A stretch of DNA of 64,000 nucleotides from positions 229,604 through 293,603 of the forward strand of contig NZ_UIHB01000010.1 of assembly GCF_900476395.1 (NCBI RefSeq), read 5' to 3'. The stretch comes from Xanthomonas euroxanthea. Its GTDB lineage: Bacteria; Pseudomonadota; Gammaproteobacteria; Xanthomonadales; Xanthomonadaceae. The translations under genes and the position numbers were made by a program. Shown piece by piece: positions 5,074 through 62,325 of the stretch (position 1 is its first letter; every line of letters starts with the position of its first letter). A model generated the notes under the pieces. It saw only the letters and a program-made list of their open reading frames with translations, made no database searches and was not told the origin of the DNA.

Positions 5074-5153
5074 GGGAATTGGGAATTGGGAATTGGGAAT
5101 TGGGAGTTGGGAAGTAGGGAAGTAGGGAAGTAGGGAAGTAGGGAAGTAGGGAA
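5074..5153. repeat. Short tandem repeat array: heptamer then octamer
   Basis: About five units of GGGAATT (the last GGGAGTT) run directly into five exact units of GGGAAGTA and one GGGAAGTG. The array separates the divergent ychJ-like and TauE/SafE genes, starting 14 bases from one start codon and ending about 50 bases from the other. Confidence 0.95.
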
Positions 5154-5203
5154 GTGAGAAGTGGGGAACGGGGTTTCTGCGCGTTTATGCTGTCGCCCCC
5201 GTC

Positions 5204-45104: not shown

Positions 45105-47441
45105 TCAGAATAACGAGCCTTGCAGCGGTGCGACCGGTGCCTCTGGCGAATCCTGTGCGATTTCAGCAGCGGGCCGTATTTGTTCCCCACCCAGCCGCCA
45201 TGCCAGGCCCGAGATGCGTGCGGCGTGCCGGGCGAGTGCGCTGCGGATGACCGCTTCGCTGCCGGCCAGGTGCAGGGCGCGGCGGGCGCGGGTGATGCCG
45301 GTGTAGAGCAGTTCGCGGCTGAGCACGCGGGCGTCGCGGGTGGGCAGTTGCAGCCAGACGGTGTCGAATTCGCTGCCCTGGGCCTTGTGCACGGTCATGG
45401 CGAAGGCGCTTTCGTGCGCGGGCAGTGCGGCGGGGTGGAAGCCGCGCACCTGGCCGTCGCCGTCGCCTTCGAACCAGGCGACCAATGGGCCCTGGGCACG
45501 GCTCTCTGTGCCTGGGTCACGGCGGTTGGCGGTGCCGGCGGACTGGCCTGGCGGTGAAGACGGGCTTTCGTCCCTGCGCCCCGAAAAGGGACTCGCATCG
45601 CTGCGCAGGCAGATGCCGACATCGCCATTGAACAGGCCGTGGCGGTAGCTGTTTTCGGTGATCAGCAGCAGGCGGCCCTGAAACCAGGGCGAGGCGCTGC
45701 CGAGGCGGCGGGCGCCGGAGCCGGTTTCGGCCAGCAGTTGTTCGATACGGGCGTTGAGGCCGCGTGCGCCCTGCGGGCCGGCGCGCACGGCGGTGAGCAG
45801 GCGCAGGCGCGCGGCATCGCGCAGGGCGGCGGCCGGGTCGTGCGCGTCGGCCAGCGCGCGCCAATGGGCGAGCAGTGCGTCGCGGCCCAGGGTGAGCGGG
45901 TCTTCGCCGTCTTCGTGGAAGTGCACGCCGGCCAGCTCGCCGCTGCGCAGCAGCGCCAGGGCGGTGTCGGCGTCGCCGGCGCGCACGGCGTCGGCCAACG
46001 GGGCGAGTGCGAAGTCGTGCGCCTGCCGGTAGCCGCGCAGCAGGTGCACGCGGTGGCCGGCCAGGCCGCCGCTGTGGGTGGCGGCGGGCGTGGTGTCAGC
46101 GGGCGCGTTGCCGAGCAGCGGTTGCAGCGCCTGTGCATCCTGCGGCTGCAGGGTGTCGCCGGGGCCGGCGGCCTGCAGGATGGCGGCGAGCACGTCGCCG
46201 GCTTCCACCGAGGGCAGCTGGTCGGCATCGCCGAGCAGGATCAGCTGGGTGCCGTCGGCCACGGCTTCCACCAGCTTGCACATCAGCGGCAGGTCGACCA
46301 TGGAGGCTTCGTCGACCACGATCAGGTCGAACGGCAGCGGGTTGTCCGCGTTATGGCGGAAGTTCGGGGAATCTGGAATGACACCGAGCAGGCGGTGGAG
46401 GGTGCTGGCGCCGGTGGGGAGGAGGGAGTTCCAGGTGGACGGCTGGCCCTCACCCGCCCTTCGGGCACCCTCTCCCGCTTGCGGGAGAGGAGAAGCGACG
46501 GGGTGCGGTGACGGCTTCGCTTGCCCGGGCGCGGCTGCCGCGGGAGTGGGTGCGAGCTGGATGCCGTCGGCGATGGCGCGGGCGACCGCAAAGCGCAGGC
46601 TCTCGGCCATGCGCTCGGCGGCGCGGCCGGTGGGCGCGGCCAGGGCGATGCGCGGTGCCGGGGTGTTGGATGCTTGCGCCTGGGCGATGCGCAGCAGCAG
46701 CAGGCGGGCGATGGTGGTGGTCTTGCCGGTGCCGGGGCCGCCGGTGACCAGCAGCAGGGTGCGGCGCAGCGCCAGGGCGGCGGCCTGGGCCTGGCGGTCC
46801 TGGTTGTGGGATGGGGCCGGTGGGTGCGTGCCGTCTTGGTAGACGGATGGCGCGGGCGGGGCCATGCCCTCTTGGTGGACAGATGGCGCGGGCAGGCCCG
46901 TGCCCTCACCCGCCCTTCGGGCACCCTCTCCCGGGGGGAGAGGGGTTGGGTCCACGGGGTGAGTGGCTGGGGTCGGGTTCGGGAATAGCTGTGCGAATAG
47001 CGGGGCCAGCGTGGCGGCGTCGAAGGGGGGCGGCGACTGGGCGGCGATGCGTTGCAGGCCCAGCGCCAGGCGGCGCTCGTATTCGCGGTAGCGGCGCAGA
47101 TAGAGCAGGCCGCGTTCCAGCACCAGCGGGCAGTCGGCGGCGGCGGGATCTTGCGGATTCGGTTGGTCGACCCAGCGCGAGGCGGCCAGGGTGCGTTGCC
47201 AGTCGGCGGGGTCCGGCATTACGGGCGATGGGCCCTCGCGCGCGTCCAGCAGCATGGCGGCGCGGGCGGGGTCCAGCCCTGCGTGGCCGCTGGTGACGGC
47301 CAGCGAGGCGAGCGCGGCGCCGGCCAGGACCTGGGGGTCGGTGTCCGGGGCCAGGCGTTGCAGGCTTTGCGCGAAGGCCAGATCCAGCGGGCGCAGCGCG
47401 TCGGCCTTGATCAGCGCGCTGAAGAGGTTTGGCTGGTTCAT
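45105..47441 (-). CDS. recD: RecD, exonuclease V alpha subunit, with repeat insertions
   Basis: A 778-residue helicase subunit of RecBCD; E. coli RecD is 608 residues. The 1B region is followed by LLVTGGPGTGKTTTIARLLL (Walker A, near residue 230), DLIVVDEASMVDLPLM (Walker B) and the C-terminal FAMTVHKAQGSEFDTVWL and RELLYTGITRARRALHLAG motifs. The excess length lies in at least three inserts: about residues 160-214 (including tandem 12-residue repeats around 46800-46902 and a REP-like element), 307-333 (a second REP-like element), and 613-650 (a Gly/Ser/Pro/Arg-rich segment). All keep the frame open and avoid the helicase motifs. Confidence 0.95.
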   Translation of the reverse strand: MNQPNLFSALIKADALRPLDLAFAQSLQRLAPDTDPQVLAGAALASLAVTSGHAGLDPARAAMLLDAREGPSPVMPDPADWQRTLAASRWVDQPNPQDPAAADCPLVLERGLLYLRRYREYERRLALGLQRIAAQSPPPFDAATLAPLFAQLFPNPTPATHPVDPTPLPPGEGARRAGEGTGLPAPSVHQEGMAPPAPSVYQDGTHPPAPSHNQDRQAQAAALALRRTLLLVTGGPGTGKTTTIARLLLLRIAQAQASNTPAPRIALAAPTGRAAERMAESLRFAVARAIADGIQLAPTPAAAAPGQAKPSPHPVASPLPQAGEGARRAGEGQPSTWNSLLPTGASTLHRLLGVIPDSPNFRHNADNPLPFDLIVVDEASMVDLPLMCKLVEAVADGTQLILLGDADQLPSVEAGDVLAAILQAAGPGDTLQPQDAQALQPLLGNAPADTTPAATHSGGLAGHRVHLLRGYRQAHDFALAPLADAVRAGDADTALALLRSGELAGVHFHEDGEDPLTLGRDALLAHWRALADAHDPAAALRDAARLRLLTAVRAGPQGARGLNARIEQLLAETGSGARRLGSASPWFQGRLLLITENSYRHGLFNGDVGICLRSDASPFSGRRDESPSSPPGQSAGTANRRDPGTESRAQGPLVAWFEGDGDGQVRGFHPAALPAHESAFAMTVHKAQGSEFDTVWLQLPTRDARVLSRELLYTGITRARRALHLAGSEAVIRSALARHAARISGLAWRLGGEQIRPAAEIAQDSPEAPVAPLQGSLF
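46447..46490. repeat. REP-like family-A element inside recD
   Basis: CCCTCACCCGCCCTTCGGGC then CTCTCCCGCTTGCGGGAGAG, the same core as the intergenic copies. In the recD frame it reads LPQAGEGARRAGEG, at about residues 315-330. Confidence 0.85.
46835..46945. repeat. 36-base tandem repeat plus REP-like element inside recD
   Basis: CTTGGTAGACGGATGGCGCG starts at 46835 and recurs as CTTGGTGGACAGATGGCGCG at 46871, a 36-base (12-codon) period. It is followed by CCCTCACCCGCCCTTCGGGC and a CTCTCCCGGGGGGAGAG hairpin at 46903-46945. In frame this is LPPGEGARRAGEG plus three diverged PAPSVHQEG-like units just before the Walker A motif. Confidence 0.85.
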
Positions 47442-47839
47442 GGGGTGGACGCCTGGTGGGCGGAGGCGCCGCGGGCGAGTTGTCGATCGGCACGTTTCTG
47501 ACCCTGCACGACACCCTCACCACAGTCTCCGCTCCGCATCCCGGCCCGCGCGGCGTGGCGCAGGCATTGCCAGGCACGCGCGCCTTGGCGCGCAAGCGGT
47601 GTGTGCTCGCCCCGAGGGGCGCGCGGCTTGCGCACAGCGCTGGGCGGGAGTGCGGTCTGTTGGGTCATGGCTCGGATGCTTCGGCGGCGGACGTACCCTC
47701 ACCCCAACCCCCGCTCCGCGCCCCAGCCCGCGCCAGCGGCGCGGGCGCTCCAAGGCACGCGCGCCAGTGGCGCGCAACCAGCGCCTTATCGCCCCCGGGG
47801 GAGCGGGGCTTTGGTGCGTCAGCGGTAAGGGGCTGTGCG
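47442..47839. repeat. recB-recD gap with family-C repeat and related sequence
   Basis: The 398-base gap separates genes that usually overlap. A reverse copy of the family-C repeat spans about 47697-47810 (GCGCCAGCGGCGCGGGCGCT...CGCCTTATCGCCCC), and a partial relative (CAGGCACGCGCGCCTTGGCG) lies near 47571-47590. No gene was recognised. Confidence 0.75.
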
Positions 47840-50800
47840 CTAGCGGGCATCGGGCGTGCCTGGGTTGCTGGATGTCGACTCTGGGGCGCTGCCGGCGAAC
47901 AGGGCATCCAGGGCCTGGACCAGGGCCGGATCGAAGCGCCAGGCGTGGATGCCGGGCGCAACGCAGACGGATGCCGCTTGGATGCCGGGTGCGGCCGCGT
48001 CGGACATGGCGTCGCTGGCGACGGCGTCGCGTGCAGGGTCGGAGCCGGAGCCGGAATTGGCCTCGGCATCGCGGGCGCGGTCGGCGCCAGGGTCGGCTGC
48101 GGCGTTGCTGTGGGGGTCGGAGCCGGGGTCGGTTGCGGCGCTGCGGGCAGGGTTGAAGCCGGGGTTGGCCTCGGCGCTGCGGGCAGGCTCGAGGCCGGGG
48201 CCTGATGCCGGGTTACGGCTGGCGTCCAGGCCGCGGCAGAACAGATAGCGCACGCCGCCGAAGTCGCGGGCGTAGTCGTAGCCATCGCCCAGGCGGAAAC
48301 GCAGCCAGCGGTGCAGCGCGACGGTGTAGATCAGCGCCTGCAACTCGTACTCGCTGTGCGCCATGGCGCGGGCCAGGGCGTCGGCGTCGTAGCTGGGCAG
48401 GCGGTTGGATTTGTAGTCAAGCACGTACCAGCGCCCGTCCACGGTGTAGGTGAGGTCGATCAGGCCGGTCATCAGGCCTTCCAGCCGCTGGCGCGCGCCG
48501 AAGGCCTGGCGCTCGCCGACCACGCCAAACCGGTGCAGCAGTGCCAGCAGTGCCTCGACGCGGGTGGGTCGCATGGCGAAGTGGAATTCCATCTCGTTAC
48601 GGCGCTGCGGCGCGGGCACGGCGGCCAGGGGGGTGCCTTCGGGCAACATCACGGTGAGGGTGTGGCCGATCAGGGCGGTGAGCATGGCCAGGCCGTCGTC
48701 CCATTCCTTCTCGACGTAGCCGCCGCGTTGCAGCGCCTCGAGGATGGCGGCGGCCTGCCCTTCGGGTGCGGGTTGGCCGGGCTGCCACGCCTGCCAGGCG
48801 GCAAAGTCGCAGCGCTCGAACACGTCGTGCATTACCACGCCGAAGCGGTTGCCGGCAAAGCGCGGGTCGAAGGCGTCGACCTCGGTGGCCACCGCGATCG
48901 CCTCGCTGCCGGCGGGCTCGTCGCTGCCGCCGCTGCCGACCACCGTGGCGCTGGCCATCGGGTCGGTGGCGGCGCCGGCATCGGCATTGGCCAGCTGGGT
49001 AAAGCTGTAGACCCACCAGTCCGGGGCGATATGCCGCTGCGGGGTGCGCGCGGGCGGCACCTGCGCCTCGACCGGCGGCGGCAGCCGCGGCAGGGTGGCC
49101 GGTGGCGTGGACGTGTCCACCACCACCGCGCCCTCGCCGGCCGCGCCCTGCAGCGCGTCGAGCGCGCGCAGCATGCCGGACAGTGCAGTGCGCTCGTGCT
49201 GGTGGAACGGGCCGCTGGCGATCCACAGCGCGTGCTCGGCACGGGTCAGGCCGACGTAGAGCAGGCGCGCGTCTTCGGCGCGTTGTTCCTGCTTCCAGGC
49301 CGCTTCGGCGACGCTCCAGCTTGGGTCGTCTTTGTCAGTCTTCCAGTGCAGCTGGCGGCCGAGCTCCGGCGCATGCACCACGCAATGGCGGCCGGCGCCC
49401 TTGTCGCTGCGGCCGATGCCGATGTACGGCAGGAACACCAGCGGATATTCCAGGCCCTTGCTCTTGTGCAGGGTGACGATCTGCACGCGGCGCGCGTCCG
49501 ATTCCAGCCGCAGCTGCTGGGCTTCGTCGTTGTCGTCGGCATTGGCGATGCGGCGCGACAGCCAGTCGACCAGGCCGTGCGGGCCGAGTGCGCGGGCGTC
49601 GGCCTCCTGCAGCAGTTCGGCCAGCTGCAGGTAGTTGGTGAGGCGGCGCTCGCCATCGCCCAGGGCGAGCAGGCGTTGCCCGTGCGCGGCGCCCAGCTCG
49701 CCGATCAAGGCCAGCGGGCCGCCGCGTTGCCAGCGCTCGCGCCAGTCCAGCGCCTGTTGCTGCCAGCGGCGGTGACGCTCGCCATCGTGTGCGAGCGCGG
49801 CGATGGCGGCGGCGTCCGCGCCGATCAGCACGGTGGCCAGCGCGGCGCGCAGGCGGCTGTCGTCACCCGGGTCGAGCAAGGCCTGCAGCAAGGCCAGCAG
49901 TTCTAGCGCTTCGTCGGTGGCGAACAAGCTCTGTTTGCCTGCGGCCACCGCAGGGATGCCCACCGCGCCCAGCGCCTGTTGCATGCGCGTGGCCTCGCCG
50001 TGGCTGCGCACCAGCACGGCGATATCGCCGGCCTGCACCGGGCGCGCGTTGATGGTGGCGGTGCCGTCGCGGCCACCGGCCAGCCAGCCGCGGATCGCCG
50101 CCACGCAGGCGGCGGTGGCCAGCTCGCGGGCGCGGCCGGCGCTCCAGGGTTTGGGCTTGCCTTTCGCAGGCGGCGGCGGTTCCGGCGCACGCCACAGCGT
50201 CAGCGCCGGGGCGGCGGCGCCATCGCGTTGCAGGTCGGCATCCGCCCGCTTGGTGCCGGGCTGCACCGGGTGGAAGGCGATGCCGTCGGTGAGGAAGGCC
50301 TCGGTATAGCCGGCCTGTGCGTACAACGCGTCGATGGCCGCCAGCACGCCGGGGCGCGAGCGGAAGTTGTGGCTCAGCGGCGGGGCGAGTTCGGCAGTGA
50401 CCGCGGCGGCCAGATAGGTGCGCACATCGCCGCCACGGAAGCCGTAAATGGCCTGCTTGGGGTCGCCGATCAGAAACAGCGCCGGCGCCAGGCCGGCCGC
50501 GCGCGCGAGCGGGCCTTCGCCGAACACGTTGGAGAAGATCGCCCACTGGCGGTCGTCGGTGTCCTGAAATTCGTCCACCAGCGCGATGGCGTATTGCGCG
50601 CGCAGCCGCGTGACCAGGGTGCCGGCCTGCGCGCCTTCCAGCGCGTGCGCAACGCCATCGACCAGGTCGTCGTAGGTCTGCACGCGGCGCTGGCGCTTGA
50701 GCAGTGCCAGCCGCGCGATGGCGTCCTCGCGTAGGGCGTGCAGCAGGCGGATGCGGCGACGTGTGCGCCATTGTTCGACACGCGCCAGCGCGGCGAGATA

Positions 50801-51889
50801 GCCGTCGATCTCGTGGCTCAGCGGCGAGGCCGGGGTGCGCTCGACGAACTTCTTGTTGGTACCGGCGGCCAGGTCCGCGGCGGTCAGCTTGATCAGCTTG
50901 GGATGCGGGGCGGTGTTGACCGATGGCGCGGCGGCGAAGCTGTCGAACCAATGCCACAGCGAGGCCAGCCACTCGGGTTTGTAGCTGACCTTGCTCAGGA
51001 TGCCGCCGTCGATGGCGGCCATCAGGGTGTCGAAAAACGCGGTGCCATGCGCCTGGAATGCGGCGGCCAGAGCGGTACTGGCGTCCTGCACGGCCTGCAG
51101 CAGCGCAGCGGAATCGTCTGGGGTGGTGGCGGCCGCCGGCAGCAGCGTTGGATGGCGCACCAGTGCGCGCAGATCGCTGGCCAATGCCTCCGGGCCGCCC
51201 GACCACAGCGCGATCAGGTCTTCGGCCATCGCCGCATCGGCGGCGCGCTGGCGCCACAGGTCGGCGGCGACTTCGCCGAGCAGTTCGCGGTCGTTGGCGA
51301 GCAGTTCCGGTGCGGCGAAGGCCTGGCCGCTTTCCAGCGCATGCTCGCGCAGCACGCGCGCGCAGAAGCCGTGGATGGTGAACACCGCGGCCAGGTCGAT
51401 TTCTTCCACCGCCTGTTGCAGGCGGCGGCGCAAGGCGGCCGGTGTCTCGGTGCCTTTGGCCAGGTGGGTGGCGAGGATGGCGCGGGTGAGCAGGACGTCA
51501 GGCGCGTCCTGTAGGAGCGGACCTGGCCGCGACGGGTCGTTGGCGAAGTCGGTCGCGGCCGGGGCCGCTCCTACAAGAGCCGATGCGCCATTGGGCGCCG
51601 GTGTTGTGGGCAAGTCGGTCGCGGCCGGGGCCGCTCCTACGGGGGTCTCGGGGACCAGGGTTGCGGCCAGCACCAGGCGCTCGCGGATGCGGCGGCGCAG
51701 TTCCTGGGTGGCGGCCTCGGTGAAGGTGACGGCGAGGATCTGGCCGATGCGCAGGCCGCGCTCGACCACCAGCCGGGTGAACAGCGTGGCCAGGGTGAAG
51801 GTCTTGCCGGTGCCGGCGCTGGCCTCGATCAGGCGCACGCCATGCAGCGGCAGGTGCAGGTACGGGTCGGTGACGGGGCTGGCGCTCAT
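47840..51889 (-). CDS. recB: RecB, exonuclease V beta subunit, with repeat insertions
   Basis: A 1349-residue helicase-nuclease; E. coli RecB is 1180. Walker A is IEASAGTGKTFT (residues 21-32), and ALVDEFQDTDDRQWAIF is Walker B. The nuclease motif LIDLTYTVDGRWYVLDYKSN near residue 1150 keeps the Asp-x-Lys residues. The excess length coincides with two inserts. Residues about 83-126 contain three copies of a palindromic element reading VGAAPAATD. A C-terminal run of 12-residue units (ARSAEANPGFNP, ARSAATDPGSDP, HSNAAADPGADR) follows YLFCRGLD and precedes the end of the nuclease domain. Start overlaps the recC stop by four bases. Confidence 0.95.
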   Translation of the reverse strand: MSASPVTDPYLHLPLHGVRLIEASAGTGKTFTLATLFTRLVVERGLRIGQILAVTFTEAATQELRRRIRERLVLAATLVPETPVGAAPAATDLPTTPAPNGASALVGAAPAATDFANDPSRPGPLLQDAPDVLLTRAILATHLAKGTETPAALRRRLQQAVEEIDLAAVFTIHGFCARVLREHALESGQAFAAPELLANDRELLGEVAADLWRQRAADAAMAEDLIALWSGGPEALASDLRALVRHPTLLPAAATTPDDSAALLQAVQDASTALAAAFQAHGTAFFDTLMAAIDGGILSKVSYKPEWLASLWHWFDSFAAAPSVNTAPHPKLIKLTAADLAAGTNKKFVERTPASPLSHEIDGYLAALARVEQWRTRRRIRLLHALREDAIARLALLKRQRRVQTYDDLVDGVAHALEGAQAGTLVTRLRAQYAIALVDEFQDTDDRQWAIFSNVFGEGPLARAAGLAPALFLIGDPKQAIYGFRGGDVRTYLAAAVTAELAPPLSHNFRSRPGVLAAIDALYAQAGYTEAFLTDGIAFHPVQPGTKRADADLQRDGAAAPALTLWRAPEPPPPAKGKPKPWSAGRARELATAACVAAIRGWLAGGRDGTATINARPVQAGDIAVLVRSHGEATRMQQALGAVGIPAVAAGKQSLFATDEALELLALLQALLDPGDDSRLRAALATVLIGADAAAIAALAHDGERHRRWQQQALDWRERWQRGGPLALIGELGAAHGQRLLALGDGERRLTNYLQLAELLQEADARALGPHGLVDWLSRRIANADDNDEAQQLRLESDARRVQIVTLHKSKGLEYPLVFLPYIGIGRSDKGAGRHCVVHAPELGRQLHWKTDKDDPSWSVAEAAWKQEQRAEDARLLYVGLTRAEHALWIASGPFHQHERTALSGMLRALDALQGAAGEGAVVVDTSTPPATLPRLPPPVEAQVPPARTPQRHIAPDWWVYSFTQLANADAGAATDPMASATVVGSGGSDEPAGSEAIAVATEVDAFDPRFAGNRFGVVMHDVFERCDFAAWQAWQPGQPAPEGQAAAILEALQRGGYVEKEWDDGLAMLTALIGHTLTVMLPEGTPLAAVPAPQRRNEMEFHFAMRPTRVEALLALLHRFGVVGERQAFGARQRLEGLMTGLIDLTYTVDGRWYVLDYKSNRLPSYDADALARAMAHSEYELQALIYTVALHRWLRFRLGDGYDYARDFGGVRYLFCRGLDASRNPASGPGLEPARSAEANPGFNPARSAATDPGSDPHSNAAADPGADRARDAEANSGSGSDPARDAVASDAMSDAAAPGIQAASVCVAPGIHAWRFDPALVQALDALFAGSAPESTSSNPGTPDAR
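47993..48205. repeat. 36-base tandem repeats in the recB 3' region
   Basis: About five diverged units of roughly 36 bases such as GCGCTGCGGGCAGGGTTGAA and GCGCTGCGGGCAGGCTCGAG. They encode 12-residue units rich in Ala/Asp/Pro/Gly/Ser within the C-terminal part of RecB. Confidence 0.8.
51511..51640. repeat. Three family-B palindromic elements inside recB
   Basis: GTAGGAGCGGACCTGGCCGC at 51511 and two inverse copies (GTCGCGGCCGGGGCCGCTCC at 51552-51574 and 51618-51640). The same element is found outside genes near 12368-12395. Within recB it codes for the GAAPAATD repeats of residues about 83-126. Confidence 0.85.
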
Positions 51890-54800
51890 TCGGCCTCCTC
51901 CTGCGCGCCGTGCCAGTGGCGCCAGCTCTCGACCAGGCGCTGCGGATCCAGCGTGGCGTCGGCGTTGCCGCGCTCGAGCAGGTCGTACACGCGGTGGCTG
52001 GTGGTGGCGAACTCGGCGAAGCGCTGTGCATCGGCGAACGGGTCGCGGCCGCGGTTGACCAGGCGCAGTTCCGGGCTGTGCGATTCGCTCCAGCCGAAGC
52101 TGGACTGCCACTGCCCGGCGGCCTCCTTGATGGCCTTGTCCAGGTCGTCGCCGCGCGCGGCCTGGTGATATTTCCAGCTGCTGTAGGGCGCGAAGGCCAG
52201 CGGCGCCTGCAGGCCGTGCCGATATAGCTGCAACAGTGCGGCCAATGCAGTTTGCGCCTGCGCCTGCGACAGCGGTTCGAGGTCGATGGGATGCGGGCCT
52301 AACCCGTCTTCGTGTTCGAAGAAGCGCACATACGGCGCATGCTCGCCGGCAGCGCGCAGCAGCAGCCATTCCAGGCCGTGACGGATCGCGCTGCGGCCGC
52401 TGAGCGCGCCGACCTGCACCCGCCCCACCCCGCTCGCATACCAGCCGGGCACGCGGCCGTGCACCTCGACATCGCCGATCTGCACCTGCAGCCGGTGCGA
52501 CTGCGCTGGCGCCTCGCCGCGCCATTGCCGGAATGCCTCGGCATACGGGCGCAATTGCGCCACCCGCTCATCGAGCTGGCGTCGCCCCAGCGGCCCGGAC
52601 GGCAGCAGCGCACGCGCGCGCAGGCGCTCGTAGAGCCGGCCGGTGTCGCCGGCCAGTGCGGCGTCGAACACATGCTGCTGCAGGCCGTATTGGTCCAGCC
52701 CGCGCGTGGGCGCCAGCAGCGGCTCCAGGTCGCTGTCTTCGCTGGCCGGGTCGGGCAAGCGCATGCCGAGGCGATGGCGCAGGAACTGCCCGGCCGGGTC
52801 GGAAAACAGGCGGCGCAGGTCGTCGATCGAGACGCTGCCCGGCACTGCGCTGTCGTCGGCCGGCAACGCACCGGCCACCCACGGCGCGAGCGGCTGGCGC
52901 TGGCCGACCAGGCTGTCCACCGACGGTCGCCATTGGCGGCGATAACTGAAACGGCGCGGGTCGGCGCCGTGATCGCCCGGCGCACCGAAGGCGGCGGCGG
53001 CGAAGGGCTGCAACGGATGCTCCACCACCAGCGTGGCGATCGCCTGCGGCTCGGCGTGGTACTGCGCGGCGCTGCCCAGCAGTTCGCTGACCAGCACCGA
53101 CGGTTCGCGCGCGCTGCCATCGCGCGCATCGGCGCCGAGATAGCTCAGGTAGAACACCTCCTGCGCAGAGGCGAACAACTGCAGAAACAGGAACCTGTCG
53201 TCCTCGCGGGTTGAACGGTCGCCATGCCGGCGGCGCTCGGTGCCCAGCTCGGCCGTGAGGCGATTGAGCCCGGCGGCCGGGTCGCGGCGCGGGAAATCGC
53301 CATCGTTCATGCCGAGCAGGCAGATCACGCGGAACGGCAGCAGGCGCATCGGCACCATGCGGCCGAAGCTGATGCCGCCGGTGAGCAGCGGCGCGCGCGT
53401 GTCCGACTCGCCCAGCACCGCGGCGAAGTGCGCACGCACCACCTCGGCCGGCACATCGCCTGCGTAATCGGCGCGCACCGCATCGCGGGCGAACTGGTCG
53501 ATCAGGCTGCGCAAGCGGTCCAGCGCGCGCTGCGCGCGCGGTGCCGACGGCGCCTTCGGAATCAACGCATCCAGCAGGCCGAGCAGACGCTCGCGCCACT
53601 CGACTGGCGTCATCGCCTTGGCCAATACCGACTGGTGGCGTTCGAGCACGCCCAGCAAGTGCAACAGCGTGTCCAGTGCGGCCAACGCGCTGCCTTCCAG
53701 CTGCGGCCAGGGCGCCACGCCCTCGATATCGTCGTCGGCGCCACTGGCATGGCCGAGCAGCAGCCGGTCCAGCGCGAAGCGCCAGGTGTAGGCATCGTCG
53801 CTCGGTGCCTGGTGCTGACGCCGATGCGCCGCATCCAGCCCCCAGCGCGCGCCGGCCGCGTGCAGCCAGCCGCGCAGGCGTTCCAGCCCGGCTTCGTCCA
53901 GGCCGGCGGCCTCGGCGATCGGCGCGCTGGCCAGCAGGTCGAGAATCTCGTGCAGGCCGAAGCGTGCGATCGGCAGGCCGAGCAAGGTGAGGAACACCTC
54001 GGCCAGCGGCTCGCTGGCCAACGGGCTGGCATCGGCCAGCGCGTACGGCAGCGCGTCGTCGTTGCCGTGGCTGCCGAACACCGCGTCCAGGTACGGCACG
54101 TACGGGTCGATGTCCGGCGACAGCACCGCGATCTCGCGTGGCTGCAGTGGCGGGTCGAAGCGTGGGTCGTCGAGCAAGGCGCGCAGCTGGTCGTGCAGCA
54201 CCTGCAGCTCGCGCAGCCGCGTGTGGCAGGCATGCACCTGCAGGCTGGGGTCGTGCAGATTCACCGTCGGTAATGCGGCAGGCACGCCTGGCGCGCGGCG
54301 ATGGAACAGGTCGCTCTGCATGCGGCGCAGCAGGCTGTCGCCCAGGCCGCCGTCGGCCAGTGCGCGGCGGCCGGACTCCAGCGGGTCGGCGTAGACGGCG
54401 ATCTCGGCCAGCGGATGCACCACCTCGTAATCGCCGACCAACGCCATGAAGTCGCGCCCGGCCGCGCCCCAGGCCTGCAGCAGCGGGTTTTCCTGTACCT
54501 GCTCGGCAAACAGCTGCACCGCGCCGTCTTCGCGGCGACGTTGCCACAGGGTCTGCAGATCGCCCCAGTACCCTTGCGTGGGCGTGGGCAGATAGAAATG
54601 CAGCGTGCCCACGCGCGCCTGCGTGGCCAGCACGCGCAGCACGTCGGGCGAAATATTCAGGATGGCAAAGGCGAACAGGCGCCTGGGCAAGCCCTGCGGC
54701 AGCGGGCCATCCGGGCGCGCGTAGCGATCCAGGTACTGGCCGATGCGGCGCGCGCGGTATTGCCGGCCGGCGGCGATGCTGCGCCACAGCCGCGCCTGCG

Positions 54801-55290
54801 GATCATCGGGGTCGGCGCCGCCTTCCCAGCGCAGCAACCAGTCGCGTCGCCAGGCCTGGTACTTCTCGAACACGTTGCCCAGCTCGCCGGCCAATGCCCA
54901 GGGCTTGAGCGCATCGCCATCGGACAGATAACCGGCCAACGGCGCCAATGCCGCATCGCTGCCCAGGTCGGCCTGCAATGCGGCATACAACCGCCACTGT
55001 GTGGTGGCCATGTCCAGATCGTCGTCGGCCGGGCCGAGATTGCACTCCAGCGCGCGCGCGACGAATTCGCCGGGGGTGAGGAATTCCAGGTTGGCGGCCA
55101 CGCCGTGCTCGGCCGCCAGCGTGGACTGCAGCCAGCGCCGCATCGCCACCTGCGGAATCAGCACCACCTCCGGCTGCAGCAACGGCTGCTCCGGCACCGG
55201 CCGGCGCAGCTCCTGGGCGAGCAAGGCGGCCAGCGTATCCAGCGCATTTGAGGGATAGAGGCGGAAATCGGGCGCGGAAGTGGCGTGCAT
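51886..55290 (-). CDS. recC: RecC, exonuclease V gamma subunit
   Basis: A 1134-residue protein, close to E. coli RecC (1122), with FRLYPSNALDTLAALLAQEL at the N-terminus, GEFVARALECNLGP, QVHACHTRLRELQVLHDQLR (the RecC inactive helicase signature) and RVICLLGMNDGDFPRRDPAAGLN. It holds the complex together and recognises Chi. The ATG at 55290 is used because it starts just before the conserved core; 55302 is an alternative. No repeat insertions were seen in it, in contrast to RecB and RecD. It is the first gene of the recCBD unit. Confidence 0.95.
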   Translation of the reverse strand: MHATSAPDFRLYPSNALDTLAALLAQELRRPVPEQPLLQPEVVLIPQVAMRRWLQSTLAAEHGVAANLEFLTPGEFVARALECNLGPADDDLDMATTQWRLYAALQADLGSDAALAPLAGYLSDGDALKPWALAGELGNVFEKYQAWRRDWLLRWEGGADPDDPQARLWRSIAAGRQYRARRIGQYLDRYARPDGPLPQGLPRRLFAFAILNISPDVLRVLATQARVGTLHFYLPTPTQGYWGDLQTLWQRRREDGAVQLFAEQVQENPLLQAWGAAGRDFMALVGDYEVVHPLAEIAVYADPLESGRRALADGGLGDSLLRRMQSDLFHRRAPGVPAALPTVNLHDPSLQVHACHTRLRELQVLHDQLRALLDDPRFDPPLQPREIAVLSPDIDPYVPYLDAVFGSHGNDDALPYALADASPLASEPLAEVFLTLLGLPIARFGLHEILDLLASAPIAEAAGLDEAGLERLRGWLHAAGARWGLDAAHRRQHQAPSDDAYTWRFALDRLLLGHASGADDDIEGVAPWPQLEGSALAALDTLLHLLGVLERHQSVLAKAMTPVEWRERLLGLLDALIPKAPSAPRAQRALDRLRSLIDQFARDAVRADYAGDVPAEVVRAHFAAVLGESDTRAPLLTGGISFGRMVPMRLLPFRVICLLGMNDGDFPRRDPAAGLNRLTAELGTERRRHGDRSTREDDRFLFLQLFASAQEVFYLSYLGADARDGSAREPSVLVSELLGSAAQYHAEPQAIATLVVEHPLQPFAAAAFGAPGDHGADPRRFSYRRQWRPSVDSLVGQRQPLAPWVAGALPADDSAVPGSVSIDDLRRLFSDPAGQFLRHRLGMRLPDPASEDSDLEPLLAPTRGLDQYGLQQHVFDAALAGDTGRLYERLRARALLPSGPLGRRQLDERVAQLRPYAEAFRQWRGEAPAQSHRLQVQIGDVEVHGRVPGWYASGVGRVQVGALSGRSAIRHGLEWLLLRAAGEHAPYVRFFEHEDGLGPHPIDLEPLSQAQAQTALAALLQLYRHGLQAPLAFAPYSSWKYHQAARGDDLDKAIKEAAGQWQSSFGWSESHSPELRLVNRGRDPFADAQRFAEFATTSHRVYDLLERGNADATLDPQRLVESWRHWHGAQEEAE

Positions 55291-55606
55291 GCGTGCGTGC
55301 ATTGTGCCGGATGCGGCCGTGCTGCGCTGTTTGCCAAGGATCTGCATGCAGCGATCGGTGCCGATGCCCAGGGCTGTCCTGTGACATGGGCAACTGCTCA
55401 GCCGCGCGTGGCGATCGACTGCCGACGCGCGGCGGACCCGACCAAACCCGACACCGGCAGGAAAGCAGACAGGCGGACCAGGCTGCACGTTGGCTTCGAT
55501 GCACTGCGGCCGATGCGCTTGGCGGCCTGTCTACAACTCCCCGTCGACCAATGCGCAGCGCAGCGCCAACGCAGCCATGCAACACATACCGCCGGCGGCA
55601 TCACAA

Positions 55607-55669: not shown

Positions 55670-58600
55670 TCAGTATTTCTTTTCCAGATTGATCATCCAG
55701 GTCTGATCGTTGTTGCTGTCGCCATCGGTGATGCCGCGGTATTCCAGCCGCGTCGACAGGCCCTGCTCGGTCAGCAACGCCGCGCCGATGCCGACCATCA
55801 GGCGGTTGCGGTCGAACGCGCTCTGGCCGGCACGATAGAACGGCCCGCCGTTCAGGTCGGCATAGCTCAGCGTGGCATCGCCGCGGCCCTGGAAGTCGCG
55901 CTGGTATTCCACGCGCAACTGCGGGGTCAGCCGGCCCCAGGCCACTTCGCGGCGCCATTCCAGGCGCAGGCCCAGGTTGCCGGTGGTGGTGGCCACGTCC
56001 ATGTCGTCATAGCGCAGCGCGAACGGCGCCACGCCGTCTTCGACATAGCCATCCAGCGTGGCGCGGGCCACATCCACACGCGCATACGGGGTGATCTGCA
56101 ACTCGCCACGCTGCAGGTCCGCACCGGTGGAGACCGACGCAATCCACTGCTTGCCGTCGCGGTTGCCCTCGGCCATCGAGCTATCGTCGGTGACGAAGCG
56201 GCGCAGGTCGTAGGACAGCAGCTGGTAGCCGACCAGGGTGTCGAAGAAGAACGCCTTGCCCGGATGGAAGCTGGCATACAGCGCCATGGTGTAGGCGGTG
56301 GCCTTGGAGTGGCTGCCGTTCCTGCCCACATCGCTGTCGTCGCGGCCCCACCCCAGGCCCGCACCGATCGCCAGCGACTGTGCCACCCGGTAATCGGCGC
56401 CCACGCTCAGGCCGTCGGTCTGGAAGTCCACCCCGTTGCTGTTGGACTGCTTGTCCAGGCTGCCCGAGCGGATTGCACCGCCCACCCACAGCCCCAGATC
56501 GCCCTGACCCTGCGCGGTGCTGTTGCCGCTGCTGGCCATTGCTGGCGCATCGCGGAAGTCGTTGTCGGCCTCCTGCGTGTCCGGGCTGCACGGCTGCGCA
56601 CTGATGCCGCGGTCGGCCTGGCGGCAATGCGAGGTCGGCTGGAAGCTCACCGCGTTGCTGAAGGTGCTGCCGCCGCGGTGGGTGGCTTCCAGGCGGCGCT
56701 GGAAGTTGTCGATCTGCGCGCGCGCAAAGCGCCGGGTGGACTCGGACTGCGCATCGATCAGGCCACGCACTTCCGCATCCACGCTGGGGTCGCGGCGCGG
56801 CGCGATGGTGAACACCACGCTGGCCGGCACCGAGGTGGCGAACGCATTGGACAAGGTGAACTGCACCGTGGCCTGACCGACGAAGGCCGGGTTGGGGGTG
56901 AAGGTCAGCATGAACGTGGGCGTCTCGGCCATCGCAGCCGCCGCCGGCGACGGGCCGGAGGCACGCGCAGCCGCCGCGGTGGCGGTGCCGCCAGTCCGGG
57001 TGATGGTGGCGGTACCGGCCGAGGCCGGCAGCACCGCGACCACGGCTGCAGCCACGAACGGCCCGCCGGTGGCATTGCGGGTCAGGTCGACCTGCTGCGC
57101 TTCGCCGGGCACGGCCGCGGCAGTCACCGACACCGCCACCGGACGTGCATTGACCGCGATGGTCACCGTGACCGGCGCCGACGTACCGCCGCTGCCGGTG
57201 ACCGTGTAGCTGACCACATCGGTGCCGACGAAACCGGCGGCCGGCGTGTAGACCAGCTCCAGCCCGTTGACCACGGCGGTGCCGTTGGTCGGCGCGGTGG
57301 CAATGCCGATCGATGCGATGTTGCCGGTGTCGTTGGCGGTCACCGCCACCGTCACCGCAGCGTCGGACATGGTCGCCGCCACATCCGCCACCGCCACCGG
57401 CGCCGCATCGCTCACCGTGAAGCTGTAGGCCTGGGTGGCGCTGGCATTGCCGGCGTCGGCCACCGCGATGGTGAAGGACGAGGTGCCCTGCGTCGTCGGC
57501 GTGCCCGACAGCGTGCCGTCGCCGGCCAGCGTCAGGCCAGCCGGCAAGGTGCCGCTGGCGATGCTGTAGCGATAAGGCGCGACGCCACCGCTGGCCGTGA
57601 GCACCTGGGTGTACGCGCTGCCGCGCGTCGCCGGTGGCAGGGTGGGCTGCGCCAGCACCAGCGTCGCCGCCGCAATGGTGACCGTATAGCGCTGGCTGGC
57701 CTGGGCCGCCGGGCTGGGCGTGCTGTCGGTCGCGGTCAGGGTGAAGTTGAACGTGCCCGACGAAGTCGGCGTGCCGCTGAGACCACCGGTCGCCGCATCG
57801 AGGACGATACCGCTCGGCAGGGCGCCGGCTGTCAGTGCATAGCTGTAAGGCGCGATACCGCCGGTCGCGGGCGCGATGGTCGCGGCGTAGACCTGAGCGG
57901 CCGTGCCGGCCGGCAAAGTACTTGCCGGCAGGACCAGGTTCGGGCCGTCCACCGTGAAGGTATACGCCTGGGTGGTGCTGGCATTGCCGGCGTCGGCCAC
58001 CGCGATGGCGAACGAAAAGACGCCTTCAGCGGTCGGCGTGCCTGACAACGTGCCGTTGCCGGACAGGGTCAGACCGGCAGGCAAGCTGCCGTTGGCGACG
58101 CTGTAGGTATACGGCGCGACGCCGCCGGACGCCGTCAGCACCTGACTGTAGGGCCTGCCACGCACCGCTGGCGGCAGCGTGGGCTGGCCAGGCACCAGGG
58201 TGGCGGCTGCAATCGTCAGCGTGTAATTGCGGCTGGCCTGGGCCGCCGGGCTGGGCGTGCTGTCGCTGGCAGTCAGGGTGAAGGCGAAGTTGCCCGACAA
58301 GGTCGGCGTGCCGCTGAGCGCACCGGTCGCAGCATCCAGCACCATGCCGTTCGGCAACGTGCCGGCCGTCAGTGCGTAGCTGTAGGGCGCGGTGCCGCCG
58401 GTCGCAGGCGAGATGGTCGCCGCGTACGCCTGCCCGGCCGTGCCTGCCGGCAGGGTGCTGGCCGGCAACGCCAGGTTCGGGCCGGCCACCGTCAGCGCAT
58501 AGGCCTGCGCAGCGGTAAAGGCGTTCGCATCGGTCGCCGTCACGGTGAAGTTGAAGCTGCCTTCCACTGTTGCGGTGCCGGACAGCGTGCCGTTGCTGGC

Positions 58601-61600
58601 CAGGGTCAGGCCAGCCGGCAGCGTGCCGCTTCCGAGGCTGTAGGTGTACGGAGCGGTGCCGCCGCTGGCGCTCAGCGTCTGGCTGTAGGCCGTGCCGCGG
58701 GTGGCGGCCGGCAGCGTGGTGGGCGCGACCGCGATCACCGGTGCCGCGATGGTCAGCGTGTAGCTGCGGCTGGCCTGCGCCGCCGGGCTGGGCGTGCTGT
58801 CGGACACGGTCAGGGTGAAGGTGAACGTGCCTGCCACGGTCGGCGTGCCGCTGAGGCTGCCGGTGGCCGCGTCCACGACAACACCCGCCGGCAATGCGCC
58901 GCCAGTCAGTGCATAACTGTAGGGCGCGGTGCCGCCAGTGGCGGGCGTGATCGCCGCAGTGTAAGCCTGCCCGGCCGTGCCTGCCGGCAAGGTGCTGGCC
59001 GGCAACGTCAGGTTCGGGCCGGCCACCGTCAGCGCATAGGCCTGCGCAGCGGTGAAGGCGTTCGCATCGGTCGCCGTCACGGTGAAGTTGAAGCTGCCTT
59101 CCACTGTTGCGGTGCCGGACAGCGTGCCGTTGCTGGCCAGGGTCAGGCCGGCCGGCAGCGTGCCCGCGCTTAGCGCATAGGTGTACGGCGCAGTGCCGCC
59201 GCTGGCGCTCAGCACCTGGCTGTACGCGGTGCCGCGGGTGGCGGCCGGCAGCGTGGTGGGCGCGACCACGATCACCGGTGCCGCGATGGTCAGCGTGTAG
59301 CTGCGGCTGGCCTGCGCCGCCGGGCTCGGCGTGCTGTCGGACACGGTCAGGGTGAAGGTGAAGGTGCCTGCCACGGTCGGCGTGCCGCTGAGGCTGCCGG
59401 TGGCCGCGTCCACGACAACACCCGCCGGCAGGACGCCGCCGGTCAGTGCATAGCTGTAGGGCGCGGTGCCGCCGCTGGCGGGCGTGATCGTCGCCGCGTA
59501 CGCCTGCCCGGCCGTACCTGCGAGCAAGGTACTCGCCGGCAGTACAACGTTCGGGCCGGCAACGGTCAGGCTGTAGGCCTGGTTGCCGGTGAAGCTCCCC
59601 GCATCGGTCGCGGTCACGGTGAAGTTGAAGCTGCCTTCCACCGTCGCGGTACCCGACAGCGTGCCGTTGCTGGCCAGGGTGAGGCCTGCCGGCAGCGTGC
59701 CGCTTGCTAGCGTGTAGGTGTACGGCGCGGTGCCGCCACTGGCGCTCAGCGTCTGGCTGTAGGCCGTGCCGCGGGTGGCGGCCGGCAGCGTGGACGGCGC
59801 AACCACGATCGGCGGCGCGGCGATGGTCAGGGAGTAGCTCTGCGTTGCCTGCGATGGCGTGCCGCTGGTGCTGTCGGTGGCGGTCACGTTGAAGCTGAAG
59901 CTGCCCGCAGTGCCGGGCGTACCGGTCAGGGCGCCGCTGCTGCCATTGAGCGTGATGCCCGCCGGCAGGGCGCCGGCGGTAACGGCGTAGGTATACGGGG
60001 CAATGCCGCCGGTCGCCGGAGTGAGCGCGCTCGAATAGGCCTGGCCCGCCGTGCCGGCCGGCAGGTTGGTCGCCGGCAGGGTCACCGTCGCGCCGGCCAC
60101 GGTCAGCGTGTAGGCACGGTTGCCGCTGGTGGGGCTGCCGCCGCTATCGGTAGCGGTGGCGGTGAAGTTGAAGCTGCCGGTGGCGGTGGGTGTGCCGGAC
60201 AGCACGCCGGCAGCGCTCAGGGTCAGCCCGGGCGGCAGCGCACCGGCCGTGACGGCGAAGGTGTACGGCGCGGTGCCGCCGCTGGCGCTCAGGTTCTGGC
60301 TGTAGGCGCTGCCGGCGGTGGCTGCCGGCAGCGTGGCCGGCCCGACAATCACCACCACATCGTCGTTGACGATGGTGCCGGTGCCGGTGGCGCGCGCGAT
60401 GCTGGCGTTGCTGGCACCGGACAGGCCGACGCTGAAGGTCTCGCTGGCCTCGACCGCGGTGTCGCCATTGACGGTGATCGCCACGCCCTGCGCAGTTGTA
60501 CCCGGCGGAAATGTCAGCGTGCCCGACCGCGCGACGTAGTCGCTCCCTGCGGTGGCGGTGCCGTTGGCGGTGGCGTAATTGACCGACACGGTCTGGCCGC
60601 TGGCCGCGCTCAGGCTCACCGTGAACGTGGCCGTGGTGGTGCCGCTATTGCCTTCGTTCACGCTGATATCGTCGATCGACAGCGACGGCACCGCATCGTC
60701 GTTGACGATGGTGCCCAGGCCCTGCGCATCGGCCACTGTCGCGCCGGTGACGTTGCTGACGTTGACGAAGAAGGTCTCGTCGGGCTCGCTGAGCGAGTCG
60801 CCGTTGACCCGCACGGTGAAGGTGGCGCTGCTGCTGCCGGCGGGGATGGTCTGCCCGGCCAGGCTGGAGGCGACGTAGTCCACGCCGGCAGTGGCAGTGC
60901 CGTCGGCAGTGGAGATATCGAAGCTGACGCCGCCGGCGCCGGCCGGCTGGCTCAACGAGACAGTGAAGGTGGCATTGGTGGTGCCGGCGTTGCCTTCGCT
61001 CACGGACACGTCGTTGATCGACAGCGCCGGCTGGTCGTCGTTGAGGATGGTGCCGGTGGCGCTGTTGGGCGACCCCACGCTGTAGCCACTGCCCGCAGCC
61101 AGGCTGATCACCACGGTCTCGTCCGGTTCGATGGTGGCATCGGCGGTCGGATTGATGGTGATGGTGCCGGTGGTCTGGCCGGCGTTGATCACCAGCGGCG
61201 AACTCACGGCCGCGTAGTCGGTGCCTGAGGTCGCGCTGCCACCGACGCTGAAGGCGACCGATACCGCGCTCTGCGCGGCCTGGTCGAGCGAGACGGTGTA
61301 GATCAGGTTGGCCGCGCCGTCCTCGGGCACGCTGGACGGAGACACCGTGATCGATGCGGTCGGAAAGTCGTCGTTGACGATGGTGGCGGTGGCGCTGGAC
61401 GGACTGCCGATGGCATAGCCGCTACCGCTGGCCACGCTGATCACCACCGTCTCGTCGGCCTCCACCGTGGTATCGGCGACCGGGGTGACGGAAAAGGTGG
61501 CCGTGGTGGCGTTGGCGGGCACCACGATGCTGCTCGGCGCACCCGTGTAGTCGGTGCCGCTGGTGGCGGTGCCGCTGCGACTAAGGTTTACCGTGGTCGC

Positions 61601-62062
61601 CGAACTGCTGCTCTGGCTCAGCGTCACCGTGTAGGTGAACGCTGCGCCGCTATTTTCGTTGCGGCTGGCCGGGCTCACCGCGATGCTGGCAGTGCGCGAG
61701 GGGTTGACGGTGATGTTGAAGACGATCTGGTTGTTGTCTTCGTCCAACAGATAGAACGAGTCCGATGTCGCACCATCGCCGTTATTGGTATAGGTCACCT
61801 GTTCGGTGCTGTCAGGATTCTGACCGGGAAGACTGTATGTGCCATGCGCCGGGGGCACGCCGGGATCGGTCATGCCGATATTGGAAGGCCCGTCGCAATC
61901 GCCGACTTCGAAGGACACCGAGCCACCTGAGTTGACGGTGGCGCTTTTCGGAGTCGGGCAGTAGGCAGCCAGGGCGACGTGAGAGGTCGCCAACAGCAAC
62001 AGCGCCAGCATCCAACGCAGCAGCAGGCGCACGCCACCCGAGGCGGCGAAGGTCGTAGACAT
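55670..62062 (-). CDS. Giant autotransporter adhesin with Calx-beta and Ig-like repeats
   Basis: A 2130-residue surface protein. A signal peptide (MSTTFAASGGVRLLLRWMLA... ending ALAAY) precedes four Calx-beta repeats (about residues 124-570, each ending in a VNDD/LNDD motif). Next come eleven repeats of about 86-90 residues, alternating two types: LPAATRGTAYSQTLSASGG and LPAGTAGQAYAATITPATGG (about 575-1545), which resemble the putative-Ig/He_PIG family. One cadherin-like domain follows (APVAVADVAATMSDAAV). The last 280 residues form a beta-barrel ending MINLEKKY. It should be secreted by the type V route and act in attachment. GGGGAA lies just before the ATG at 62062. Confidence 0.9.
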   Translation of the reverse strand: MSTTFAASGGVRLLLRWMLALLLLATSHVALAAYCPTPKSATVNSGGSVSFEVGDCDGPSNIGMTDPGVPPAHGTYSLPGQNPDSTEQVTYTNNGDGATSDSFYLLDEDNNQIVFNITVNPSRTASIAVSPASRNENSGAAFTYTVTLSQSSSSATTVNLSRSGTATSGTDYTGAPSSIVVPANATTATFSVTPVADTTVEADETVVISVASGSGYAIGSPSSATATIVNDDFPTASITVSPSSVPEDGAANLIYTVSLDQAAQSAVSVAFSVGGSATSGTDYAAVSSPLVINAGQTTGTITINPTADATIEPDETVVISLAAGSGYSVGSPNSATGTILNDDQPALSINDVSVSEGNAGTTNATFTVSLSQPAGAGGVSFDISTADGTATAGVDYVASSLAGQTIPAGSSSATFTVRVNGDSLSEPDETFFVNVSNVTGATVADAQGLGTIVNDDAVPSLSIDDISVNEGNSGTTTATFTVSLSAASGQTVSVNYATANGTATAGSDYVARSGTLTFPPGTTAQGVAITVNGDTAVEASETFSVGLSGASNASIARATGTGTIVNDDVVVIVGPATLPAATAGSAYSQNLSASGGTAPYTFAVTAGALPPGLTLSAAGVLSGTPTATGSFNFTATATDSGGSPTSGNRAYTLTVAGATVTLPATNLPAGTAGQAYSSALTPATGGIAPYTYAVTAGALPAGITLNGSSGALTGTPGTAGSFSFNVTATDSTSGTPSQATQSYSLTIAAPPIVVAPSTLPAATRGTAYSQTLSASGGTAPYTYTLASGTLPAGLTLASNGTLSGTATVEGSFNFTVTATDAGSFTGNQAYSLTVAGPNVVLPASTLLAGTAGQAYAATITPASGGTAPYSYALTGGVLPAGVVVDAATGSLSGTPTVAGTFTFTLTVSDSTPSPAAQASRSYTLTIAAPVIVVAPTTLPAATRGTAYSQVLSASGGTAPYTYALSAGTLPAGLTLASNGTLSGTATVEGSFNFTVTATDANAFTAAQAYALTVAGPNLTLPASTLPAGTAGQAYTAAITPATGGTAPYSYALTGGALPAGVVVDAATGSLSGTPTVAGTFTFTLTVSDSTPSPAAQASRSYTLTIAAPVIAVAPTTLPAATRGTAYSQTLSASGGTAPYTYSLGSGTLPAGLTLASNGTLSGTATVEGSFNFTVTATDANAFTAAQAYALTVAGPNLALPASTLPAGTAGQAYAATISPATGGTAPYSYALTAGTLPNGMVLDAATGALSGTPTLSGNFAFTLTASDSTPSPAAQASRNYTLTIAAATLVPGQPTLPPAVRGRPYSQVLTASGGVAPYTYSVANGSLPAGLTLSGNGTLSGTPTAEGVFSFAIAVADAGNASTTQAYTFTVDGPNLVLPASTLPAGTAAQVYAATIAPATGGIAPYSYALTAGALPSGIVLDAATGGLSGTPTSSGTFNFTLTATDSTPSPAAQASQRYTVTIAAATLVLAQPTLPPATRGSAYTQVLTASGGVAPYRYSIASGTLPAGLTLAGDGTLSGTPTTQGTSSFTIAVADAGNASATQAYSFTVSDAAPVAVADVAATMSDAAVTVAVTANDTGNIASIGIATAPTNGTAVVNGLELVYTPAAGFVGTDVVSYTVTGSGGTSAPVTVTIAVNARPVAVSVTAAAVPGEAQQVDLTRNATGGPFVAAAVVAVLPASAGTATITRTGGTATAAAARASGPSPAAAAMAETPTFMLTFTPNPAFVGQATVQFTLSNAFATSVPASVVFTIAPRRDPSVDAEVRGLIDAQSESTRRFARAQIDNFQRRLEATHRGGSTFSNAVSFQPTSHCRQADRGISAQPCSPDTQEADNDFRDAPAMASSGNSTAQGQGDLGLWVGGAIRSGSLDKQSNSNGVDFQTDGLSVGADYRVAQSLAIGAGLGWGRDDSDVGRNGSHSKATAYTMALYASFHPGKAFFFDTLVGYQLLSYDLRRFVTDDSSMAEGNRDGKQWIASVSTGADLQRGELQITPYARVDVARATLDGYVEDGVAPFALRYDDMDVATTTGNLGLRLEWRREVAWGRLTPQLRVEYQRDFQGRGDATLSYADLNGGPFYRAGQSAFDRNRLMVGIGAALLTEQGLSTRLEYRGITDGDSNNDQTWMINLEKKY

Positions 62063-62325
62063 AAGTTTTCCCCGAAAAAGCACGCCACCCCAAATGGCGT
62101 CGGCAGCGGTCCTGGTGCCTCGGATCAGCGCAACGCAATGCCTAAAGAGGCATGTGATTCAACTATAGCGCTATTTGAACTGGAACTGACTGCCAGTTAA
62201 AGAATGAAAAATTAATACTTCATCTCAATTAGGATCTTGGTGGCTTGTGGTATGCAATGTCGGCAGGTATGACTACGTCAGTCTCCGACAGTCGGTCGGC
62301 GGCGCACCTACGTGGGGAGAGCTGC
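62063..62325. promoter_or_regulatory. Divergent promoter region of adhesin and collar genes
   Basis: This 263-base gap between divergent genes has an AT-rich core (GAATGAAAAATTAATACTTC near 62201) that is unusual for the genome and fits promoters. No clear operator palindrome was found. Confidence 0.45.

What the first reader, a model, noticed from the sequence alone, without database searches (positions are those of the whole stretch)
45105..51889. RecB and RecD swollen by in-frame palindromic and tandem repeats
RecD (778 residues) and RecB (1349) are each about 170 residues longer than E. coli homologues. The excess coincides with family-A elements at 46447-46490 and 46903-46945, family-B elements at 51511-51640, and 36-base tandem repeats at 46835-46902 and 47993-48205. 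Frame is kept and helicase/nuclease motifs are intact. It resembles Rickettsia palindromic elements in coding genes, here concentrated in the DNA-repair enzyme itself, while RecC is free of them.
Basis: partly seen in the sequence, partly recalled or inferred. Interest (0 to 1): 0.75.

Follow-up and report, generated by a model that had tools for sequence, protein, structure and literature searches.

The report
Palindromic repeats captured inside recB, recD
In Xanthomonas bacteria two subunits of the RecBCD DNA-repair enzyme carry extra loops built partly from the genome's own mobile-type palindromic repeats; the recB case was already in print, the recD case looks like a further example, and where the repeats survive their letters have changed unusually little.

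Summary
RecD (778 aa) and RecB (1349 aa) exceed E. coli's 608 and 1180. Two family-A elements lie in recD and three REP arms (family B) in recB, in frame, none in RecC. The inserts sit at shared sites in most main-clade Xanthomonas and are short in most other Xanthomonadaceae examined. Both families are otherwise mainly intergenic. Of 144 copies examined in this genome, 7 lie in genes: recB 3, recD 2, glyS 1, an E2 linker 1. Repair genes are over-represented, not alone. REPs in Xanthomonas recB at a shared site, and repair genes as frequent hosts, were published in 2013 (PMC3733652; its gene list and figure were not readable here). My searches listed no report of family A in recD, the recD minisatellite, or of stem and tag codons changing less than flanks while loops vary. 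Best reading: old in-frame captures in tolerant loops, mostly inherited vertically, kept partly by constraint on the nucleic acid. Any effect on RecBCD or its expression is untested.

The parts
45105..47441 (-). recD, 778 aa (exodeoxyribonuclease V alpha)
   Evidence: TIGR01447 526 bits, over cut-off; E. coli RecD 1w36_D E 1.2e-78
46797..46976 (-). RecD insert S1, 60 aa (between E. coli residues about 146 and 153)
   Evidence: 4-7 aa in most other Xanthomonadaceae examined
46903..46945 (-). family-A palindromic element in S1, read GEGARRAGEG
   Evidence: 30-mer match 46903-46932
46829..46907 (-). 36-bp minisatellite in S1; unit not found elsewhere in the genome
   Evidence: TRF score 116; 2 of 2 genome matches at up to 2 mismatches lie here
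46413..46562 (-). RecD insert S2, 50 aa (between E. coli residues about 220 and 232)
   Evidence: 11 aa when empty
46447..46490 (-). family-A element in S2, read GEGARRAGEG
   Evidence: 30-mer match 46447-46476
45489..45602 (-). RecD insert S3, 38 aa, no family A or B
47840..51889 (-). recB, 1349 aa (exodeoxyribonuclease V beta)
   Evidence: TIGR00609 703.9 bits, cut-off 696.05; E. coli RecB
51500..51661 (-). RecB insert B1, 54 aa (between E. coli residues about 80 and 111)
51511..51574 (-). REPIN-like pair: two inverted family-B arms (51511-51533 and 51552-51574), read VGAAPAATDFANDPSRPGPLL; RNA hairpin -56 kcal/mol, z -7.0 for 51500-51585
51618..51640 (-). third, single family-B arm, read VGAAPAAT
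47948..48229 (-). RecB insert B2, 94 aa, 36-bp tandem repeats, no family A or B
51886..55488 (-). recC, free of both families

Best explanation
Family-B (GTAG-type REP, REPIN-like) and family-A palindromic elements were captured in frame, before or early in the radiation of the main Xanthomonas clade, at a few loops of RecB and RecD that tolerate added residues. Shown: the shared sites, the nearly uniform frame and orientation, the relation to mainly intergenic families, a recD-specific variant kept across species, and low change at stem and tag positions in the rows that keep the element. Inferred: that a RAYT put family B there (route of family A unknown), that the loops are flexible and leave the enzyme working, and that the letters are kept by selection on the nucleic acid (hairpin or protein-binding site) as well as on the frame. 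The sequence around the elements (36-bp minisatellites, linkers) grows and shrinks freely.
For: Final REPIN unit intact in 24 of 32 main-clade Xanthomonas recB that I chose. Family A at S1 in 27 of 34 recD (one of the 27 weak; of the other 7, two cut, one holds it in another frame) and at S2 in 19 of 34. Short in most other family members. 40 of 41 family-A matches in genus recD share orientation and phase, and the family-B arms in genus recB keep one phase per orientation. recD copies carry CACCC..ACCCTCTCCC (3 exact copies in the own genome, two in recD), while E2 and most other copies carry CATCC..ACCTTCTCCC. Rare codons inside elements are shared by 92% (12 columns, recD) and 86% (7 columns, recB) of genomes against 50% (42) and 41% (86) elsewhere in the genes. 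Tree-aware counts of change at stem third positions: 1.0 against 2.48 in flanks (recB, 23 rows), 1.0 against 2.85 (S1, 26 rows), 0.38 against 1.76 (S2, 17 rows); flank windows as low: 13 of 227, 8 of 220, 4 of 202. In recB, loop codons change 2.5-3.25 times per position against 0.25-1.0 in stems. Of six genomes with few family-B copies, the only perfect copies are in recB in two (G032: 2 of 7 matches; G006: 1 of 13).
Against: Rows without a recognisable element were left out of the change counts (9 of 32, 8 of 34, 17 of 34), which favours low change; with all 32 recB rows the stem contrast disappears (third-position variability 0.23 against 0.14-0.16 in flanks), because 8 rows have lost or rearranged the unit. 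In the other four low-copy genomes the recB copy is not the sole best: G010 one mismatch (tied), G019 perfect copies lie elsewhere, G011 and G022 have none in recB at up to 2 mismatches. The fourfold-diversity test was not significant for S1 (p 0.11; recB 0.003). Covariation is weak. Family-A RNA folds no better than shuffles (z -1.1, -0.3). L036 recB carries an arm of the sister subfamily, which looks like exchange. States flip often: at least 7 changes at S1 and 9 at S2 on 59 rows. No structure model could be run.
Confidence: 0.55

Rival explanations
1. Translational brake (compatible with the best explanation): the REPIN forms a very stable hairpin about 105 codons into recB mRNA and limits RecB synthesis, as Hfq does in E. 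coli; the element is kept for that.
For: RNA hairpin -56 kcal/mol, z -7.0, 0 of 200 shuffles as stable; stem letters kept and loop free in rows that keep it; E. coli RecB is scarce and held down after transcription (PMC12342828, abstract read).
Against: 8 of 32 recB lack the intact unit; glyS and E2 hold similarly uniform elements; no expression data; weak covariation.
Confidence: 0.2
2. Ongoing traffic: RAYT or gene conversion keeps replacing the in-gene copies from the intergenic pool, so they look young.
For: PF01797 matches in 31 of 35 genus genomes, two in the own genome; one recB arm of the other subfamily (L036); repeated gain or loss at S1 and S2; in G019 perfect copies exist outside recB.
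Against: recD copies keep their own variant while most of the pool is of another; in G032 and G006 recB copies are perfect though no other perfect copy exists.
Confidence: 0.12
3. The inserts change RecBCD activity (for example a mutator enzyme), as speculated in 2013 for repair genes with REPs.
For: Repair genes recur as hosts in the literature (PMC3733652, sections 15 and 17 part 1 read); recB and recD hold 3 of 5 sites here.
Against: glyS and an E2 linker are hosts too; conserved helicase motifs are intact; insert lengths differ widely between close relatives.
Confidence: 0.08
4. Plain neutrality: tolerant loops, no constraint; apparent conservation reflects short age, codon bias or the choice of rows.
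For: Inserts are low-complexity and variable; fourfold test for S1 not significant; contrast vanishes when decayed rows are included.
Against: Rare-codon and tree-aware tests; loop and stem differ inside one element.
Confidence: 0.25

Closest known systems
Intragenic GTAG/CGTC REPs (Di Nocera et al. 2013, PMC3733652), including recB of X. campestris and X. oryzae
   Same: Family B has the GTAG tag, palindrome and inverted pairs; in frame in recB at about one site; repair genes and X. oryzae tRNA synthetases named as hosts
   Different: Main text has no hit for recD, but its Figure 7 and Additional file 3 gene lists were not readable; the parts I read do not test nucleotide-level conservation; family A lacks a GTAG or CGTC tag
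Rickettsia palindromic elements (RPE)
   Same: Palindromic repeats read in frame inside working genes
   Different: Here few genes, a GTAG-type and an untagged family, sites shared across a genus; RPE facts are from PMC3733652 and recall
REPIN/RAYT system
   Same: Two inverted REPs with a short spacer; RAYT-type (PF01797) matches in 31 of 35 genomes
   Different: REPs are described as almost exclusively intergenic (PMC3686654, passage); mobilisation of these copies was not tested

Membership tests
GTAG-tagged REP / REPIN (family B) | GTAG at one end next to a short palindrome | tested here: met
   GTAGGAGCGG-N4-GGCCGCGAC arms
GTAG-tagged REP / REPIN (family B) | Arms paired in opposite orientation with a short spacer | tested here: met
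   51511-51533 and 51552-51574; hairpin
GTAG-tagged REP / REPIN (family B) | Many, mostly intergenic copies | tested here: met
   128 matches; of 100 distinct copies examined 4 in genes; 28 not examined; sites within 40 codons of a gene end cannot be called
GTAG-tagged REP / REPIN (family B) | RAYT gene in the genome | tested here: met
   PF01797 twice in own genome; its match to this REP not tested
GTAG-tagged REP / REPIN (family B) | Mobilised by its RAYT | not testable with these tools
   needs experiment
GTAG- or CGTC-tagged REP (family A) | GTAG or CGTC tag at one end | tested here: not met
   searched core CCCTCAYCCGCCCTTCGGGCACCYTCTCCC and its window copies show neither
In-frame protein-coding palindromes (RPE-like) | Element in frame inside a conserved gene, related copies elsewhere | tested here: met
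In-frame protein-coding palindromes (RPE-like) | Host protein made and working | not testable with these tools
   conserved motifs intact only

The most novel reading that the evidence does not exclude
The palindromes in recB (and perhaps recD, glyS, E2) have become working parts at the nucleic-acid level: a hairpin in the coding mRNA, or a protein-binding DNA site, that sets how much of these enzymes is made, so that one sequence serves as a peptide loop and a regulatory signal.
Probability: 0.2. Interest if true: 0.75.

Novelty: new member of a known kind. Interest (0 to 1): 0.42.

Why it matters
Why REPs in genes fall so often in replication and repair genes has been an open remark since 2013 (PMC3733652). 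The genus-wide record here (shared sites, a recD-specific variant, stems kept and loops free where the element survives, and in two genomes perfect copies only in recB) turns that remark into a testable case, and shows that non-repair hosts (glyS, E2) must be explained by the same rule.

Tried and rejected
Rejected: a coding site at C9:617041 (L157), first flagged; genes there lie on the other strand and the REPIN is between them. Rejected: recB/recD as sole hosts. Rejected in its general form: homogenisation with the genome pool, though L036 hints at one exchange. Considered: self-templated correction of the two arms; it should leave paired changes, and only 3 pairs, 5 cells show them, reached by 149 and 31 of 500 shuffles (the covariation score by 6 of 500, a control that related rows can beat). 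Single-arm hairpins gave nothing stronger. Strong RNA structure in in-gene family A: not found (z -1.1, -0.3), while an intergenic copy gave z -2.8 and a single intergenic family-B arm z +1.2. The fourfold-diversity test was inconclusive for S1. First gene-caller settings missed recB and were changed; the final one recovered 162 of 180 random positions in six window genes, most of them in its own training set. The family-B column used a mis-spaced pattern (one base short) and is not used; glyS rests and the insert lengths. A literature search for short family-A strings found 59 papers holding one of them; the 15 listed were unrelated. No structure was obtained: the predictor was busy. On checking, confidence in the best explanation was lowered from 0.6 to 0.55, because four of the six genomes do not show the recB copy as sole best.

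Full report
What is there. The window is 64 kb of contig 1 of a 4.90 Mb genome. The nearest named row in a RecB+RecD tree is Xanthomonas arboricola pv. populi (96% over 1759 columns; records of the own genome may be left out of that collection). recC, recB and recD lie in a row on the minus strand. Against E. coli, RecD carries three insertions (about E. coli 146-153, 220-232 and 503-504) and RecB two (about 80-111, and near the C-terminus). I call them S1, S2, S3, B1, B2.

Content of the inserts. S1 and S2 each hold one family-A element and B1 three family-B arms, two forming a REPIN-like pair. S1 also holds a 36-bp minisatellite whose unit was found only there in the genome (2 of 2 matches); L041 has about nine units. 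B2 is a 36-bp tandem array without either family. The palindromes themselves make about 29 residues in RecD and 43 in RecB.

Genome-wide families. Family A has 56 matches and family B 128 in the own genome; reversed-pattern controls gave 0 and 3. Among 144 distinct copies in the stretches I fetched (44 A, 100 B; duplicates judged by flanks) nine were flagged as coding and two of these (L157) rejected. Seven remain: recB 3, recD 2, glyS 1, E2 acyltransferase 1. About 28 B and 12 A copies were not examined, and the caller needs 40 open codons on each side, so sites near gene ends are missed. The names glyS and E2 are my reading of the translations.

Across relatives. recBCD loci came from 31 of the 34 same-genus genomes and 9 outgroups, 20 further family genomes and 78 named loci, of which the 66 numbered L199-L264 were analysed and L265-L276 were not; 91 recD and 87 recB rows were distinct. 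In main-clade Xanthomonas the final REPIN unit is intact in 24 of 32 recB; family A is at S1 in 27 of 34 and at S2 in 19 of 34 recD, with S2 empty (11 aa) in 10, filled without the motif in 4 and cut in 1. Early-branching rows such as X. albilineans have short S1, S2 and B1. S1 is also filled with family-A-like sequence in a few Stenotrophomonas (L238, L240, and L186 unnamed) where S. maltophilia is empty; whether that is a separate capture is open. S3 above 13 aa and B2 above 16 aa were seen only in the main Xanthomonas clade. Minimum changes on a 59-row tree: S1 7, S2 9, S3 2, B1 4, B2 2, at length thresholds of 20, 20, 12, 25 and 16 aa (quick method, unrooted; gain and loss cannot be told apart, and recombination of recD alleles is not excluded).

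Conservation as nucleic acid. Rare codons inside the elements are far more often shared than elsewhere in the same genes (12 columns, 92% against 50%, recD; 7 columns, 86% against 41%, recB; Mann-Whitney p 5e-6 and 6e-4, rows not independent). Tree-aware counts point the same way. In recB rows that keep the unit, variable letters are mainly those of the REP loop, first and second codon positions included, while tag and stem third positions vary 0.05 against 0.14-0.16 in flanks (one search shows the same on motif-selected arms). Caveats: rows without the element were left out (9 of 32 recB, 8 of 34 S1, 17 of 34 S2); with all 32 recB rows the contrast is gone; columns are few; one search was not significant for S1. 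E2 and glyS elements look similarly uniform among rows that have them, but this was not tested formally: over all rows the E2 third-position value (0.17) is like its flanks. So nothing here is special to RecBCD.

Mixing with the pool. recD copies keep a variant that is rare outside: 3 exact copies in the own genome, two in recD; G002 and G009 have one exact copy each, in recD (that list is cut). Of six genomes picked for few family-B copies, recB holds the only perfect copies in G032 and G006, is tied best in G010, and is not in G019, G011 and G022. L036 recB has one arm of the sister subfamily. Descent is therefore the main pattern, with some loss and perhaps some exchange.

Prior work. PMC3733652 (passages; section 15 and section 17 part 1) reports REPs inside genes in many species, recBCD among them, X. 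campestris and X. oryzae recB at about the same site, tRNA synthetases in X. oryzae, and speculates on mutator effects. Its figure and gene list were not readable, so recD could be in them. My literature searches listed no paper on such elements in recD; the library holds open-licence papers only.

Mechanism. I commit to capture in tolerant loops, mainly vertical descent and partial nucleic-acid constraint (0.55). A role of the -56 kcal/mol recB hairpin in limiting RecB is the most testable extension; E. coli RecB is scarce and held down after transcription (PMC12342828, abstract). The odds of rivals are not exclusive of the best explanation. No structure model could be made, so 'loop' rests on alignment to E. 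coli and on sequence make-up.

Noticed in passing
L174:886-2421 (own genome C10:521485-523020): Family-A element read in frame (GEGARRADEG) in the linker of a 2-oxoacid dehydrogenase E2; matched in 24 of 30 genus loci
   Followed up: partly
L141:1106-3295 (own genome C1:133605-135794): Family-B-type insert in glyS: 22-23 aa in 26 of 30 genus loci, 4-7 aa in the other 4
   Followed up: partly
L051, L057: recD is not open in one frame; L057 reads family A in another frame. Assembly error or a real break; left as it is
   Followed up: no
window 5074-5168: G-rich 7-8 bp tandem repeat, perhaps the quadruplex-type repeat reported as enriched in Xanthomonas (PMC4692102, seen only in a search listing)
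   Followed up: no
window 1483-1885: Family-A element beside or inside tandem duplications of 120 and 141 bp
   Followed up: no
window 55670-62083: 2137-aa protein with many Ig-like repeats and an autotransporter-like end (my reading of the translation)
   Followed up: no
L186, L238, L240: S1 of recD filled with family-A-like sequence in a Stenotrophomonas subgroup while S. maltophilia (L264) is empty: possible second capture at the same site
   Followed up: partly
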